A stretch of 54,173 bases of DNA from Actinomycetes bacterium (GCA_030614915.1 JAUXAG010000016.1:1-54173), one strand, 5' to 3'; counted from the stretch's first letter, positions 15,805-22,022 are shown. The notes: a model not told the origin generated them from the sequence alone. Program-made: numbers and translations.

Positions 15805-15909
15805 CTATTTTTTGCTGCCGCGGCCCGTACGGACTTGGCTGGCTAGTCTCTTAGATAATCGCTTCAGGGCCTGCGAATGGTCCTCCCGATCCAGACGCAC
15901 TTTGAGCAT
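15805..15909 (-). pseudogene. Ghost copy of the 3' end of the TPP decarboxylase gene
   Basis: The leftward frame from 15909 to a TAG at 15805 encodes 34 residues, ending [18 protein letters not shown] then GRGSKK. The intact decarboxylase at 20343-22022 ends [18 protein letters not shown] then SSGSKK. About 24 of 34 residues agree, with one in-frame 3-base gap; the DNA shares a 21-bp identical block (15829-15849 and 20370-20390) and a 17-bp block over the stop codon. Homology stops abruptly at about 15908, and an in-frame TAA lies just upstream. It is a relic of a paralogue or of an insertion event. The rest of the gap 15701-15981 holds nothing else recognisable. Confidence 0.8.
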
Positions 15910-15981: not shown

Positions 15982-18900
15982 CTATTTCCACGATTTTTTG
16001 AGCTTCTGAACAGCAGGACCATATCCTGGGTATCTAGTCTCCACCTGTTCGAGTACCTCATTTGCCTCGTCAGCTTTGCCCCGCGCCTTCTTACAGCGAG
16101 CCAGACCGATCCCTCCCATAGGCGAAAAATACGAGTCCTCCTCAAACAGTGCTGAATAATGCTTCTCAGCCTCAGTGGACTTTTCCATTTCATATGCCCC
16201 TCCAGCAGCTAGCCTCGCCAAGCTTGTGTCAATTCGACTCCTGCCGTTCTCGGTCACACGCCGAATCGAAGCAGCGGACAGAATTTCTCCTGCATTCTCG
16301 TTGTCCCCCATATAGAGCGCCGAGCTGCCTTCTGCAAGTACATCCGTTGAGGCAAGCTGAGTCACGGCGGTCATAAAGGCCATTTCCATTTTCTTAGAAT
16401 CTCCACCTGCCAACTGCTGACGTGCCCGTATTTTGCCGTCCTTTATAATGGATCGCTGATACTTGGCCCAATCTAGCAACAGGTCCCACTCCTCCGTTTT
16501 TTTGTCCTTGTCAATGGACTCGATTGTTCGTACAACTTCGTCGAGTGTCCTCATGGCAAGGTCTTTGTCTTTGAGTTTTTCTACAGCTATCTCAGCTAAA
16601 TACAGCTTACATGGTACTTCATGGCCTACTTGGTTGATGCCCTCTAAGTTCTTCGAATTTTGCAGGATTGTCCCGTAAGCACGGATTGCCCTGGCCGTAT
16701 TTCCGGAATGCCTCGCTATGCTGCCAATCCAGTGATACGCAACTAAATTAATTGGTTCCGCGAATCCCGCTCCATCTTCGCTGCCATGTTTAGCAACCAC
16801 ATCTTCTAATATCGAAATTGCCTTGTCCGGCAGCCCACATAGATTAGCAATCTTTGCTGAGGCAAAATAAGCCTCCACACTTGGATTAGGCTGCGCCAAG
16901 AGCAAATCGATGAGCCTGTCAACCTCTACTTTGCTTGATTGCTCACCTTTGCTGACCCAGGCCGCAGCGGCATCACCCAATTCTTCCAGAATATGTAGTT
17001 CCCGACCAAGAGTTAGCAACTCCTCTGCTGTCCAGTTCTCCTCAACCATATTTGGCTGGTTAGCTCTGGGAGCTTTCCGCGTAGGTCTGGCTTTCCTGAC
17101 GAATCCGATAAACTTCCTGGGATAGATGATTTTCGCCCCGTTCTTATTTGTGTAGGCGGATTGGAAAAGCAGCTCTCGCATCTGTTCAGGCCCTATGTCA
17201 GGACGAACCTGCCAGCCCATTGCCAGCACACCGGCACAATAAGGTATTGCCCTGCTCAACCCACCGCGTTCAGCGTATTGATAGCCAGGTACGTCACCAT
17301 CTTCGGCAGCTGTTCGAGGAGATGAGGGCACAAGAAGATCAATTTGATTGGGATCAACTCTAAATTTTCTATTTGGTGGAACCCCGGGGTTGCACTTGGT
17401 TACGTTCTCTGGATACCTGGCATCGTACCAGCACTTACCGATAAACCCGCGACGACAACTATCGGTACAGTCGAGTACCATAATTCCATCTGCCTCTGCT
17501 CGGGCACAGGCCCTGTCCCACATCTGTCGATTTGCCCAGGATGACTGATTTGGTGATGCCGAAACTGATACCACACGGATTTTCTCTCCTTTCGGAAGTT
17601 TCTCGTTTTGTGCAATTATCCAGTCTAATCCCTTAGCATAGTAGGCTGCATCTGCTTTCCATGAAGGAGCCGCCACATAATACACGCGCACGCCCGGGGC
17701 TGTTCCACAATGAGTCCCCGCCAGCAGGCTTGTAACCAATGGACCATGCATGCTGCTATCATCATGCGGTGCGCAACCCATGTCGTGGTAGGCCACAATT
17801 TTTCCAGCGAATTCAGGATGGACCAGGTACACTGGCTGGTCGATAATAGCTACATTGACACCCTTACCGGTGATGCCCTGTTGGTGTAGTTCGCGAACGC
17901 CAAGGCCCGGATTCAATGCATCAGTAAGTATTTTGTTGGGATCACTTCCAGGGGGCATTTTTGCCTGTTCGGGCCAAACCGTTTTCTGATTAAATGTCAG
18001 TGTAGCAATGAGCCCCCTTCTGGCAGAAAAATCGAGTTTGCTCAGATCTTTCCATCTGACATCATCGTACGGCTTGACCGATTCTATTGGCTTAGGCAGA
18101 CGAGAGATCTTCTTTGTGACGCTGAACTCCATGACCGTTCTGTTCTTCTTGTGGATTATAAACTGGAGGCCTTTATCCTCGTAAGTAAGATAAAGCTTCC
18201 CCTGGTCTTCCGTAAATTGAAACTGAAGGCCAAACGCTTCTACAAATTCCTGTTTCGAGTTACCCACTCCCAACCCGTTGGTAAATTTGTAAAGAGGACT
18301 GTACACAACGATCGCTCGGACCGAATCATCTACTATCTCAAAGGAAATGTCGTCAAAACGCATGAAATATGTTTTCGGAAGATTGTTAAGGGTGTACTTT
18401 TCTCCCCCGTGGAAAATCGCCTTTGGTTTTCCCAGACTTTTCAAAACGTCGTCTTTACTCATGCCAAACTTGTAGTCACCAACTCGCACCCCAGGCACGA
18501 TTGTATTAGTCTCGGAGCGCACACGAGAAGTTTTCTGTGGAACAACGTTGATCTCTATCACAGTTTTATTATCATTCCAGATCACAAATACAAGGCCTTC
18601 CTTCTTGTAAGTCAGAATATCCTTCAATTTGAATTCTCTGAGATCAAAGTCATTCCCAAAATGTTCTTTGACTTTCTGCTCCGAGTCACCCACTCCCAGC
18701 CCATTGGCGAATTTATAACGGGGACTAAGAACAGTAATTCCTTTAAGTGAATCTCCAACGATACCAAGATGAAGACCATCCACTTTAAATACCGAACGCC
18801 CTTGCCCCTTTGGGGAATCTCCCTTTAGTTCCCCTATTCTTTCCAACACCTCGTCTTTGCTCATGCCAAACTTGTAGTCACCAACTCCCACACCGGGCAC

Positions 18901-19785
18901 GATTATATTAGTCTCGGATTGGGCAACCTTAGCGTTGATATCCAAAGGAGCGCTAATCGCTCCTTCAATAGTTTTTTTTTCGGCCTCACTCTGTGTGTCC
19001 GAACTAGTTTTCTCTGCCGCAGGGACCTTTTTGAGTACATAGTAACTTGGCCTTTGGCCTCGGATGGTGACGTCGCCACTGAGCCAAGGGAAGAAAAGAT
19101 AATGTTCTCCGCCTATCACCTTTATTTCGTACTGAGCTTTTATTTTGCCATTGCCGTGCCAAATCCAACCCTTGCTCCAGGTGTTAGGATGCGACATTCT
19201 GCCGTGTTCCATGAACCTGATCTTTTTCAGGAAAAGCTCTCCTTGCCACGTTTTTATCTCTGGTTCAAAGTCACCGACGAACTTCACAAAATCGACGCTT
19301 TGCCAGTTTCCCAAAATCCTAGCATCATTTACGAAAGGATGCGGCAAAGTATCTTCGCGACGCTGTATTTTAAAGGTGTCTTGCTCGGGTTGCTGTATTT
19401 TTGGAGGTCTCTTGGGCGGTATTGTGGGGCTGTCGTGGTCGGGTTGGTAGAGCTTTGGCAGAATTAGGATGGCAACAACGCCGATACCTAAAACAACAGC
19501 GAGAAGCACAACGAACTTCAGTGAGGGTCTTTGTTTCTTGAGAGTTTGTCTTGTATCCAGCAGCTCTGCGTATTCGCAAGGTGGCCCCATGTCCGTGATA
19601 ATGGCCTGAAAGTCTTCCCAGGTGTGCTGGTCCGCCGGAAGTTCCGCAAAACGCCGATCAAGATGAGAGCTTACATCATCGAGAACACCTTTGCTGCGAG
19701 GATGATTAACCAACGACAAAGCTTTCTCAACCTGGTGTAGGTACTCCGTTTTGAGAGATTCCCAGGTTCTGTTTTGAGAGTTCAT
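15982..19785 (-). CDS. Membrane-anchored multidomain protein: HAAS domain, TM, repeats, subtilisin-like protease, TPR-like C-terminus
   Basis: 1267 aa. Residues 1-80 resemble the HAAS/DUF1700-type domain usually paired with PadR regulators (EYLHQVEKALSLVNHPRSKG, EDFQAIITDMGPPCEYAELL). One membrane helix lies at about 90-112. Residues 155-252 are a beta-rich lipocalin-like domain (ILGNWQSVDF...FMEHGRMSHP). Two homologous repeats follow at about 293-416 and 426-556, each opening IVPGV.VGDYKFGMSKD.VL and containing NGLGVG.S. An S8 peptidase domain spans 635-880: Asp649 (NVAIIDQPV), His680 (SSMHGPLVTSLLAG), Asn746 (SVSASPN) and Ser844 (GGLSRAIPYCAG) make a full triad with oxyanion Asn. Residues 900-1267 are helical and TPR-like. 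The gene starts 2 bases after padR. It probably faces outward and cleaves or senses envelope proteins under PadR control (inference). Confidence 0.85.
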   Translation of the reverse strand: MNSQNRTWESLKTEYLHQVEKALSLVNHPRSKGVLDDVSSHLDRRFAELPADQHTWEDFQAIITDMGPPCEYAELLDTRQTLKKQRPSLKFVVLLAVVLGIGVVAILILPKLYQPDHDSPTIPPKRPPKIQQPEQDTFKIQRREDTLPHPFVNDARILGNWQSVDFVKFVGDFEPEIKTWQGELFLKKIRFMEHGRMSHPNTWSKGWIWHGNGKIKAQYEIKVIGGEHYLFFPWLSGDVTIRGQRPSYYVLKKVPAAEKTSSDTQSEAEKKTIEGAISAPLDINAKVAQSETNIIVPGVGVGDYKFGMSKDEVLERIGELKGDSPKGQGRSVFKVDGLHLGIVGDSLKGITVLSPRYKFANGLGVGDSEQKVKEHFGNDFDLREFKLKDILTYKKEGLVFVIWNDNKTVIEINVVPQKTSRVRSETNTIVPGVRVGDYKFGMSKDDVLKSLGKPKAIFHGGEKYTLNNLPKTYFMRFDDISFEIVDDSVRAIVVYSPLYKFTNGLGVGNSKQEFVEAFGLQFQFTEDQGKLYLTYEDKGLQFIIHKKNRTVMEFSVTKKISRLPKPIESVKPYDDVRWKDLSKLDFSARRGLIATLTFNQKTVWPEQAKMPPGSDPNKILTDALNPGLGVRELHQQGITGKGVNVAIIDQPVYLVHPEFAGKIVAYHDMGCAPHDDSSMHGPLVTSLLAGTHCGTAPGVRVYYVAAPSWKADAAYYAKGLDWIIAQNEKLPKGEKIRVVSVSASPNQSSWANRQMWDRACARAEADGIMVLDCTDSCRRGFIGKCWYDARYPENVTKCNPGVPPNRKFRVDPNQIDLLVPSSPRTAAEDGDVPGYQYAERGGLSRAIPYCAGVLAMGWQVRPDIGPEQMRELLFQSAYTNKNGAKIIYPRKFIGFVRKARPTRKAPRANQPNMVEENWTAEELLTLGRELHILEELGDAAAAWVSKGEQSSKVEVDRLIDLLLAQPNPSVEAYFASAKIANLCGLPDKAISILEDVVAKHGSEDGAGFAEPINLVAYHWIGSIARHSGNTARAIRAYGTILQNSKNLEGINQVGHEVPCKLYLAEIAVEKLKDKDLAMRTLDEVVRTIESIDKDKKTEEWDLLLDWAKYQRSIIKDGKIRARQQLAGGDSKKMEMAFMTAVTQLASTDVLAEGSSALYMGDNENAGEILSAASIRRVTENGRSRIDTSLARLAAGGAYEMEKSTEAEKHYSALFEEDSYFSPMGGIGLARCKKARGKADEANEVLEQVETRYPGYGPAVQKLKKSWK

Positions 19786-19787
19786 AC

Positions 19788-20120
19788 TTATGATCCCTTC
19801 CTTATGGTTTGCATGCTTTGGGTTAGTTCATCCCAATGCCTATTCATTTCGGCGACGGTTTCTTGGCCCAGCTTTGTAAGCTCATAGTATTTTCTGGGAG
19901 GGCCATCTCGTGAAGGTTCTTGATGGCACGTAGCCAATCCATCTGTTTCCAGGCGTGCAAGAATAGGATAGATGTTGCCCTCTCGGATTCTCAGAGCCGT
20001 GATTTGCTTTAGGCTCTGAACCATTTCGTAGCCGTGACATCTGCCCTTGCCTAGAAGGTTGAGTATTACGGTATCTAATAGGCCCTTACGAAGCTGAGAT
20101 TGCCAGTTGTTTAGATTCAC
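19788..20120 (-). CDS. PadR-family transcriptional regulator
   Basis: Winged-helix repressor. Motifs: RKGLLDTVILNLLGKGRCHG, YEMVQSLKQ, REGNIYPILARLETDGLATC and PPRKYYELTKLGQETVAEMN, all standard for PadR. GTG 20120 (VNLNNWQSQL) is chosen, with AAGGA 11 bases upstream; the open frame continues to 20192 but that part contains the promoter. 110 aa is usual. It is immediately followed by the HAAS/subtilase gene, the normal arrangement in which PadR represses itself and a downstream HAAS protein. Confidence 0.9.
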   Translation of the reverse strand: MNLNNWQSQLRKGLLDTVILNLLGKGRCHGYEMVQSLKQITALRIREGNIYPILARLETDGLATCHQEPSRDGPPRKYYELTKLGQETVAEMNRHWDELTQSMQTIRKGS

Positions 20121-20162
20121 GATCTTCGGTTCCTTTCCCGAGAAACTATGGAAGCTTTCCAG

Positions 20163-20192
20163 TATACTATATTGCAGTATAGATAAAGTCAA
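20163..20192 (-). promoter_or_regulatory. padR promoter with overlapping dyad (probable PadR operator)
   Basis: Read leftward: -35 TTGACT (20192-20187), 17-bp spacer, -10 TAGTAT (20169-20164). A perfect inverted repeat TATACT-N7-AGTATA covers 20163-20181 and includes the -10. Its place suits autorepression by PadR. The rest of the gap to the decarboxylase stop (20193-20342) contains a run of ten G at 20313-20322 and no gene. Confidence 0.65.
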
Positions 20193-20342: not shown

Positions 20343-22022
20343 CTATTTTTTGCTGCCGCTGCTGCTCGGACGGACTTGGCTGGCTAGTCTTTTGGACAAT
20401 CGGTTCAGAGCCTGGGAATGATCGTCCACGCCCAGGTGCACGTTGAGCAGACTGAACTGCTCGGTATTATCCAGGGCTGCGTTCAAGGCCTGTTCCAGCT
20501 CACCTTCAGTGCTCACCTCAAACCCCAGGCCGGCGCCGAGCACGTCGGCTATACGATGGTACTGCCAATCATAGATATCATTAAAAGGCCCGTCCCAGAT
20601 CACCCGTTCCGTGCCGTAGCCTTTGTTATTTAGCACGATGATAATCGGATTGAGCTTCCGGGCTGCTATTGTGGACAGTTCCATCCCCGTCATCTGAAAG
20701 GCCCCGTCGCCGACGATAACGATAGGCCTCAGGTATGGCCTGGCCAACTGGGCTCCCAGCGCCGCCGGCACCGCAAAGCCCATCGAGGTATAGTAAGCTG
20801 GACTGATAAACTCCGTCCGCTCCCGCACCACCAGATCGACCGCCCCGAACAACGCATCGCCGATGTCCGCGATGATCACCGTATCCTTGGTCAGCAGTTG
20901 ATTCAGTCGCTGGTACAGCCGGTCCGTGGTGATGCGGGCTCTCGGCCGAACCCTATATTTACGCAGCTCGGCCCAGGCGGCGGTGGGACGTTTTCGCCTG
21001 GCCCCGCAAATCTTGGCTGATATCAGACCCTCCACAAAGTCCCCCAGGCTCACGTCCTGATAGACGTGATGGCGGATCCGCACCTGTTCGCTCGAGGCCG
21101 AGATGCATTGGCCGGTATGCAGATTGGCCGTATTAATCCCCAGGTTGATGTCGGTCATAAACGCCCCCAGCATCAGCACGCAATCCGAGCTCTCCACGAA
21201 GCGCCGCACGCTTTCGCGTCCCATCGCCCCTTCGTAGACGCCCACGTACATGCGATGCGATTCGCTGATAACTGATTTACCCAACAGGGTAGCTGCCACC
21301 GCAATGCCGCTCTGCTCGCTGAGCTTGACCAGCTCGTCCTGCAGTCCGAAGCGGTGCATTTCCACCCCCGCCAGGATCACCGGCCTCTTGGCCGAGCTCA
21401 GCATCTGCCCAGCCTCCTCGAGTGCTTCTGCCAGCACATGGCCATCACTGGCCCCGGCCGCGGGCTTGCGCAGTGCCCGTTGCTCCGGAACGCTCAGCAC
21501 CCTATCCTGCGGCAGCTCTATGTACACCGGCCGCTTGTAGCGCATGGCCGCATTCAGAACCCGGTCAATATCCTCAAAGGCCCGGCTCGGATCTTCCAAG
21601 GCCGTGCTTGCCACCGTAATCCGTTCGAAGACCTCCCGCTGAGTCGAAAAATCCCTCACCCTATGGTGCAGCAGCGGATTGAGTTGGCGCTGAGCCATCC
21701 CCGGCGCCCCGGAGATGACCACTACCGGGGATTTTTCGGCGTAGGCCCCGGCAATCGCATTGGTCATGCTCAATCCTCCCACGCAATACGTAACACACAC
21801 CGCCCCCAGGCCCTTCACCCGGGCGTAGGCATCTGCCGCAAAGCCCGCGCAGTCCTCCCGCGTAGTACCTACCACCTCGATATCACTGCGGCTGAGCATA
21901 TCGTAGAAACGCAGCACGTAATCGCCGGGCACGCCGAAGATGTGCCTGATCCCCAACTTCTTCATCCGCTCGATGAGATAATCCCCCACGGTCAACAGCT
22001 GTTTTGACTTTTTATTCTTCAT
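20343..22022 (-). CDS. Thiamine-diphosphate-dependent 2-keto acid decarboxylase (pyruvate/indolepyruvate decarboxylase family)
   Basis: 559 aa. Three TPP-enzyme domains are visible. N-terminal: [20 protein letters not shown] with the activating Glu56 ([19 protein letters not shown]). His119-His120 ([11 protein letters not shown]) is the pair that marks decarboxylases rather than acetolactate synthases. Central: [18 protein letters not shown]-terminal TPP/Mg site: [19 protein letters not shown] through [15 protein letters not shown]. It would turn a 2-keto acid such as pyruvate into an aldehyde and CO2. The start overlaps the upstream lipoprotein gene by 11 bases. Its 3' end is duplicated at 15805-15909. 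Substrate cannot be told apart here. Confidence 0.85.

What the first reader, a model, noticed from the sequence alone, without database searches (positions are those of the whole stretch)
15982..20192. PadR-controlled membrane subtilisin with HAAS domain, twin repeats and TPR-like tail
HAAS-type domains paired with PadR usually sit in small membrane proteins. Here the HAAS domain is fused through one membrane helix to a lipocalin-like domain, two copies of a 125-residue repeat (VGDYKFGMSKD), a complete S8 triad (Asp649, His680, Ser844) and a long helical tail. A dyad TATACT-N7-AGTATA overlaps the promoter. This looks like a one-operon envelope proteolysis switch: a cytosolic HAAS signal, an outer protease and a self-regulated repressor. 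I know of no described system with this domain order.
Basis: partly seen in the sequence, partly recalled or inferred. Interest (0 to 1): 0.68.

Follow-up and report, generated by a model that had tools for sequence, protein, structure and literature searches.

The report
PadR-HAAS membrane sensor fused to subtilisin
A planctomycete carries a self-repressing two-gene switch in which the membrane sensor protein that would normally only talk to the repressor has been fused to an outward-facing protein-cutting enzyme, so that sensing and response may sit in one molecule.

Summary
A padR gene (GTG start, 19788-20120) is followed 2 bp later by a 1267-codon gene: HAAS (Pfam E 4e-7, above its cut-off), one membrane helix, a small beta-rich domain (LIPO), two copies of a CAP_assoc_N/DUF4309-like domain (REP), a subtilisin-like S8 domain with D649/H680/S844, and a TPR tail. 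The dyad TATACT-N7-AGTATA overlaps the padR -10 region. It recurs exactly upstream of related padR genes in two other families and is absent from 500 shuffles each. Relatives show how the protein was assembled. PadR plus HAAS-TM-LIPO is a recurring small module. REP-S8 is a separate exported protease family. In genome G285 the same parts (PadR, REP-S8, TPR-LIPO, HAAS-TM-LIPO-LIPO) are separate genes in one cluster with the same operator. In G178 another PadR-HAAS pair precedes an S8-REP gene. LIPO and REP also form the outer part of BlaR1-type receptors. Best reading: a variant of the known HAAS-PadR dyad whose ectodomain carries a protease output. Protease activity, signal and polarity are untested, and the canonical oxyanion Asn is not conserved. 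The TPR tail is absent from the sister species. The full fusion was seen only in this genus.

The parts
19788..20120 (-). padR repressor gene, 110 aa from the GTG at 20120
   Evidence: Pfam PadR 1.1e-21; start inferred from relatives beginning MNLxNW
20163..20181 (.). operator-like dyad TATACT-N7-AGTATA
   Evidence: unique in window, 0 in shuffles; exact upstream of padR in G001, G285, G086 and 1 mismatch in G231, G240
20164..20192 (-). sigma70-like promoter: -35 TTGACT 20192-20187, -10 TAGTAT 20169-20164; -10 lies in the dyad
   Evidence: consensus match only
15982..19785 (-). fusion gene, 1267 aa: HAAS-TM-LIPO-REP-REP-S8-TPR
19564..19746 (-). HAAS domain, residues 14-74, with GxP (G67-P68-P69)
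19453..19515 (-). membrane helix, residues 91-111; positive residues on N side, so HAAS cytosolic and the rest outside
   Evidence: hydropathy, (inference on topology)
19024..19341 (-). LIPO domain (residues 149-254), small beta-rich ectodomain, lipocalin/DUF4909-like only weakly
18535..18918 (-). REP1 (CAP_assoc_N/DUF4309/YfeY-like domain)
18109..18516 (-). REP2 (same fold)
17089..18081 (-). S8 subtilisin-like protease domain (residues 569-899)
   Evidence: Pfam Peptidase_S8 5e-11
17839..17841 (-). catalytic Asp649 codon
17746..17748 (-). catalytic His680 codon
17254..17256 (-). catalytic Ser844 codon
17461..17463 (-). Asp775, aligned with the subtilisin oxyanion-hole Asn
   Evidence: position variable in the family
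15985..17031 (-). TPR tail (residues 919-1267), separate secreted protein in G035, missing in sister species G001
15808..15908 (-). remnant of the 3' end of the neighbouring TPP-decarboxylase gene, 78% identical to 20349-20449; marks the insertion of the padR-protease module before cobO

Best explanation
This is a HAAS-PadR signalling dyad whose membrane partner has been fused to an exported subtilisin. PadR binds the dyad over its own promoter and holds the two-gene operon low (inferred from the conserved operator and from known PadR autorepression). The HAAS domain sits in the cytosol and is tied through one helix to LIPO and the two REP domains outside the inner membrane, which bind a ligand or sense a state of the envelope (inferred from their use as BlaR1 ectodomains). 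A change there alters HAAS contact with PadR and relieves repression, so more of the same protein is made. The S8 domain on the same chain is the output: it cuts envelope or incoming polypeptides held near the membrane, the TPR tail helping to recruit substrates or partners. When the signal falls, PadR shuts the operon again. Shown here: parts, order, operator conservation, modular origin. Inferred: topology, sensing, direction of the signal, proteolysis.
For: HAAS over Pfam cut-off. PadR upstream of HAAS in 36/39 loci. Same operator in four families: two exact matches outside the genus and two with one mismatch, 0/500 shuffles each. HAAS-TM-LIPO with PadR as a small module in G240, G086, G205, G074 and G231. 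Same parts as separate genes in one cluster in G285 with the same dyad before padR. PadR-HAAS followed by an S8-REP gene in G178 from a different PadR clade and a different S8 subclade. LIPO and REP as ectodomains of M56/BlaR1 proteins: LIPO then REP in L175, REP-LIPO-REP in L178; BlaI-like repressor directly upstream in L178, L183, L184. Triad invariant in all S8 members that cover it. Purifying selection. Published model of HAAS-PadR as an alternative to two-component systems (PMC11237479) and autorepression of a PadR-DUF1700 operon in Listeria (PMC6624303).
Against: No experiment. The oxyanion Asn is not conserved (D775 here), so activity may be weak or changed. Full fusion seen only in this genus, and the G001 copy is split over two contigs. 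TPR tail missing in G001. In most genomes the S8 family lies without PadR or HAAS nearby. No second convincing operator in the genome: the other exact site (C1:207243) lies within the trmD coding region, so the regulon may be this operon alone.
Confidence: 0.5

Rival explanations
1. Proteolytic receptor: S8 is part of the sensing, not the output. On a signal it cuts its own LIPO-REP ectodomain or a bound partner, which frees or collapses HAAS and releases PadR, like BlaR1 or regulated intramembrane proteolysis.
For: LIPO and REP are the ectodomains of BlaR1-type metalloprotease receptors; protease and sensor are covalently joined; some S8 relatives carry the REP domain together with two S8 domains (L013, L162).
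Against: In G285 and G178 the S8 protein is a separate exported protein, and many relatives lack any PadR; HAAS-LIPO works with PadR in other genomes without S8.
Confidence: 0.2
2. HAAS as anchor and titrator only: the protein has no external signal; its level alone feeds back on PadR, keeping a constitutive membrane-tethered protease at a set amount.
For: Autoregulatory operon with one operator; no known ligand for LIPO or REP.
Against: LIPO and REP are conserved in several receptor contexts, which suggests sensing.
Confidence: 0.15
3. The S8 domain is a non-cleaving peptide-binding domain; the system is purely a sensor.
For: Oxyanion Asn replaced and variable across the family.
Against: Asp, His and Ser invariant in every S8 member that covers them, hard to explain without catalysis.
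Confidence: 0.1
4. Chance fusion of unrelated genes brought by the insertion next to cobO, with no joint function.
For: The module sits between the decarboxylase gene and a duplicated 3' remnant of it; congener G002 lacks it; the tail differs between sister species.
Against: The same parts are neighbours in G285 and G178 independently; purifying selection.
Confidence: 0.05

Closest known systems
HAAS-PadR-like wHTH dyad (mSystems 2024, PMC11237479)
   Same: HAAS at the N-terminus of a membrane protein, encoded next to a standalone PadR; proposed signal relay to PadR
   Different: The fusions named in the passages read are PspC, Toastrack, LiaI-LiaF, FtsX/MacB, FtsW/RodA, VanZ and pentapeptide repeats; no subtilisin, LIPO or REP ectodomain is named there
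Listeria lltR operon: LltR (PadR) - lmo0600 (DUF1700) - lmo0601 (DUF4097) (PMC6624303)
   Same: Self-repressed padR operon with a membrane DUF1700/HAAS-superfamily protein and an exported partner
   Different: Separate genes, no protease, multi-spanning membrane protein
BlaI-BlaR1 (M56) receptors
   Same: LIPO and REP ectodomains shared with M56/BlaR1-type proteins (L175, L178, L183, L184); repressor encoded next to the receptor
   Different: Cytosolic signalling part is HAAS, not an M56 metalloprotease; regulator is PadR, not BlaI; the protease is outside and of family S8
Subtilases (MEROPS S8)
   Same: Fold and triad; closest solved relatives by profile are subtilisin-like serine proteases (9ues, 3afg) and subtilisins
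   Different: No propeptide family detected, oxyanion Asn not conserved, membrane-tethered by HAAS-TM
CAP_assoc_N / DUF4309 / YfeY domains
   Same: Predicted fold of REP matches 4h0a, 4ifa, 4ygt, 2qzb
   Different: No Pfam family reaches its cut-off on the window protein

Membership tests
HAAS-PadR dyad | HAAS domain recognised by profile | tested here: met
   30.6 bits, cut-off 27
HAAS-PadR dyad | standalone PadR encoded next to it | tested here: met
   2 bp upstream, Pfam PadR 1e-21
HAAS-PadR dyad | GxP motif in the third helix | tested here: met
   G67-P68-P69 in the window; in several close relatives the motif reads MGPA or LGPV
HAAS-PadR dyad | physical HAAS-PadR contact and signal relay | not testable with these tools
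   proposed, not proven, in PMC11237479
PadR autorepressor | conserved operator over own promoter | tested here: met
PadR autorepressor | repression of its own operon | not testable with these tools
   needs binding and expression assays
Peptidase family S8 | Asp-His-Ser triad in S8 order | tested here: met
   D649, H680, S844, invariant in the family
Peptidase family S8 | oxyanion-hole Asn | tested here: not met
   Asp775 aligned; variable in the family. Some known S8 members have Asp here (own knowledge: PC2)
Peptidase family S8 | protease activity | not testable with these tools
   none
BlaR1 receptor family | M56 metallopeptidase domain | tested here: not met
   no M56 match; only the ectodomains are shared
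Lipocalin/calycin | calycin beta-barrel fold | tested here: inconclusive
   confident model (pLDDT 95.3) but best matches 4lqz E 0.2 and 4gzv E 0.8; profile hit to 4lqz E 0.009
CAP_assoc_N/DUF4309-like | fold match to solved members | tested here: met
   4h0a, 4ifa, 4ygt, 2qzb with E 1e-4 to 5e-4, probability 1.0
Known anti-phage defence system | match to a PADLOC system | tested here: not met
   only a generic subtilase model at 9e-8, nothing for PadR

The most novel reading that the evidence does not exclude
HAAS-PadR is a second chassis, parallel to BlaI-BlaR1, on which the same outer sensor modules (LIPO, REP) are mounted. In this genus the chassis, the sensor and its proteolytic output have merged into a single self-regulated transmembrane protease, a one-protein sensor-effector in which an external subtilisin is wired to transcription through HAAS.
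Probability: 0.35. Interest if true: 0.65.

Novelty: new variant of a known kind. Interest (0 to 1): 0.5.

Why it matters
HAAS-PadR dyads are proposed as an alternative to two-component systems, but what they sense and do is mostly unknown. Here the pair is tied to a defined enzyme and a conserved operator, which gives a direct test: one short DNA site, one repressor, one sensor domain and one scorable active site. The swap of LIPO and REP between BlaR1-type and HAAS receptors also suggests that these unnamed domains are general envelope sensors in planctomycetes, and that their ligand could be learned from either system.

Tried and rejected
Anti-phage defence: only a generic subtilase match in PADLOC. 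A wider PadR regulon from the operator: one other exact site in the genome, within the trmD coding region, and the reversed control pattern gave more matches (6 per strand at up to 1 mismatch) than the real pattern (2), so a regulon cannot be claimed. Sequence search for LIPO among solved structures: only DUF4909 at E 0.009. Pfam and NCBIfam for the whole architecture: no family covers it. Genome-contig scan for the full fusion: only partial relatives L013 and L014. S8 family outside the class: one clear hit among 392 phylum genomes. Literature searches combining PadR, HAAS, subtilisin and BlaR1 returned nothing relevant beyond the papers cited. Operator sequences in the LftR and Bacillus PadR structure papers: not printed in the text held, so no comparison with a proven PadR operator.

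Full report
What is there. On the minus strand a padR gene is followed 2 bp later by a 1267-codon gene. The padR ORF was listed from a TTG at 20192, but relatives begin with MNLxNW, so the GTG at 20120 is the likely start. This puts the dyad TATACT-N7-AGTATA (20163-20181) upstream of the gene and over the -10 of a promoter-like site. The big protein has HAAS (14-74, above the Pfam cut-off), one membrane helix, a 105-residue beta-rich domain here called LIPO, two copies of a repeat here called REP, an S8 domain and a TPR tail.

It is a real, selected gene. Against the sister species G001 the S8 part has dN/dS about 0.27 and PadR about 0.06. G001 keeps the gene order decarboxylase, padR, HAAS on one contig and S8, cobO on another; both contig ends fall inside the gene, so a continuous fusion there is likely but not proven. 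In G001 the ORF stops directly after S8, so the TPR tail is not a fixed part. A homologue of the tail is a separate 375-aa secreted protein in G035, and the tail was found in only 3 of 198 genomes including this one.

How the module arrived. In the third congener G002 the decarboxylase gene lies about 50 bp from cobO with nothing between. In the window a 101-bp copy of the decarboxylase 3' end (78% identical) lies between the protease and cobO. The padR-protease module therefore sits between a full gene and a duplicated remnant of its end, which points to insertion with a local duplication in the ancestor of G000 and G001 (inference; loss in G002 is possible but would not explain the remnant).

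Where the parts come from. HAAS was found in 72 of 248 genomes of the class, with PadR directly upstream in 36 of 39 loci examined. HAAS-TM-LIPO with its own padR is a small recurring module, for instance in G240, G086, G205 and G231. The S8 subfamily occurs in 21 of 298 genomes of the class and is mostly exported; about half of its members carry a REP domain. Several exported REP-S8 proteins start their mature part with DINxKVxQ or a close variant, and the same motif stands at residue 282 of the window protein just before REP1, which marks the likely fusion point. LIPO-S8 fusions without HAAS also exist (G193, G213).

The unfused equivalent. In G285, of another family, one cluster on one strand holds padR, a REP-S8 protein with a helical tail, a TPR-LIPO-DUF4019 protein and a HAAS-TM-LIPO-LIPO protein, and the exact dyad stands before padR. 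This is nearly the window protein taken apart. In G178 a PadR-HAAS pair is followed closely by an S8-REP gene. Its PadR belongs to a different clade and its S8 to a different subclade, so the link between PadR-HAAS and this protease family arose at least twice. A rough estimate, from about 0.36 HAAS-PadR loci per genome and some 3500 genes, makes three such neighbours among 22 S8 loci very unlikely by chance (order 1e-6; the inputs are approximate, the flanks are unequal and the loci are not fully independent).

The operator. Among ten padR genes of the LIPO type the dyad is exact in four (window, G001, G285, G086), has one mismatch in two (G231, G240), two in three and three in one. For the first six, none of 500 shuffles per locus did as well; the weaker ones are reached by 1 to 4% of shuffles. 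Thirty-three other HAAS-PadR loci do not have it (3 to 6 mismatches); a subset of those shows a different dyad of the type CATACTATG-N5-CATAGTATG. The operator thus follows the PadR clade. The same search over the genome found one further exact copy, within trmD, and cannot be told from chance.

Outer modules shared with BlaR1. LIPO and REP also occur behind M56 (BlaR1) domains: LIPO then REP in L175, REP-LIPO-REP plus a secretin domain in L178, REP in L183 and L184. A BlaI-type repressor lies directly upstream in L178, L183 and L184 (read from the sequence, not by profile). AlphaFold models of both domains are confident (pLDDT 95). REP matches CAP_assoc_N, DUF4309 and YfeY structures. LIPO has no clear match; DUF4909 (4lqz) and a lipocalin-family protein are the nearest, and weak.

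Is the protease active? The triad is invariant in every family member that covers it. The position of the oxyanion Asn is not conserved; here it aligns with Asp775. Catalysis is likely but not shown.

Mechanism. The published proposal is that HAAS relays membrane-linked signals to PadR through its GxP groove (PMC11237479), and a PadR-DUF1700 operon in Listeria is self-repressed (PMC6624303). With the operator, topology and modules found here, the most likely reading is a self-repressed operon whose product senses the envelope through LIPO/REP, talks to PadR through HAAS and acts through S8. Sensing, relay and proteolysis are inferred. The main rival is that S8 takes part in signalling by cleaving the receptor itself.

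Verdict. It is a new variant of the HAAS-PadR dyad, not a new category, and the complete fusion is confined to one genus in what was searched.

Noticed in passing
15808-15908 and 20349-20449: A degenerate copy of the 3' end of the TPP-dependent decarboxylase gene lies before cobO, and congener G002 has the decarboxylase and cobO side by side: an insertion scar of the padR-protease module.
   Followed up: yes
L178 3646-7665: One 1340-aa frame joins a BlaR1-type M56 domain, REP, LIPO, REP and a secretin domain, with a BlaI-like repressor directly upstream.
   Followed up: partly
L162 5836-8661: An S8-REP-S8 protein is encoded between FtsX/MacB-like permease genes; in other bacteria such permeases are themselves reported as HAAS fusions.
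   Followed up: no
L161 4231-7293: An S8-REP gene directly follows an ECF sigma factor gene that is fused to a carboxypeptidase-regulatory-like domain.
   Followed up: no
L056, L059, L062, L055 upstream of padR: A second, different dyad (CATACTATG-N5-CATAGTATG) precedes padR in another HAAS-PadR clade.
   Followed up: partly
L014: A public contig titled 'Actinomycetes bacterium' has the same length and the same coding sequences as a contig of congener G001 of this planctomycete genus: probably a mislabelled assembly.
   Followed up: partly
L188 1296-1412: Congener G002 keeps only a 39-residue C-terminal scrap of a LIPO domain, apparently a gene remnant.
   Followed up: partly
L045 (G000:C14:52583-52741): The same genome has a second HAAS-PadR pair, of a different PadR clade, with a 548-aa HAAS protein of unknown ectodomain.
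   Followed up: no
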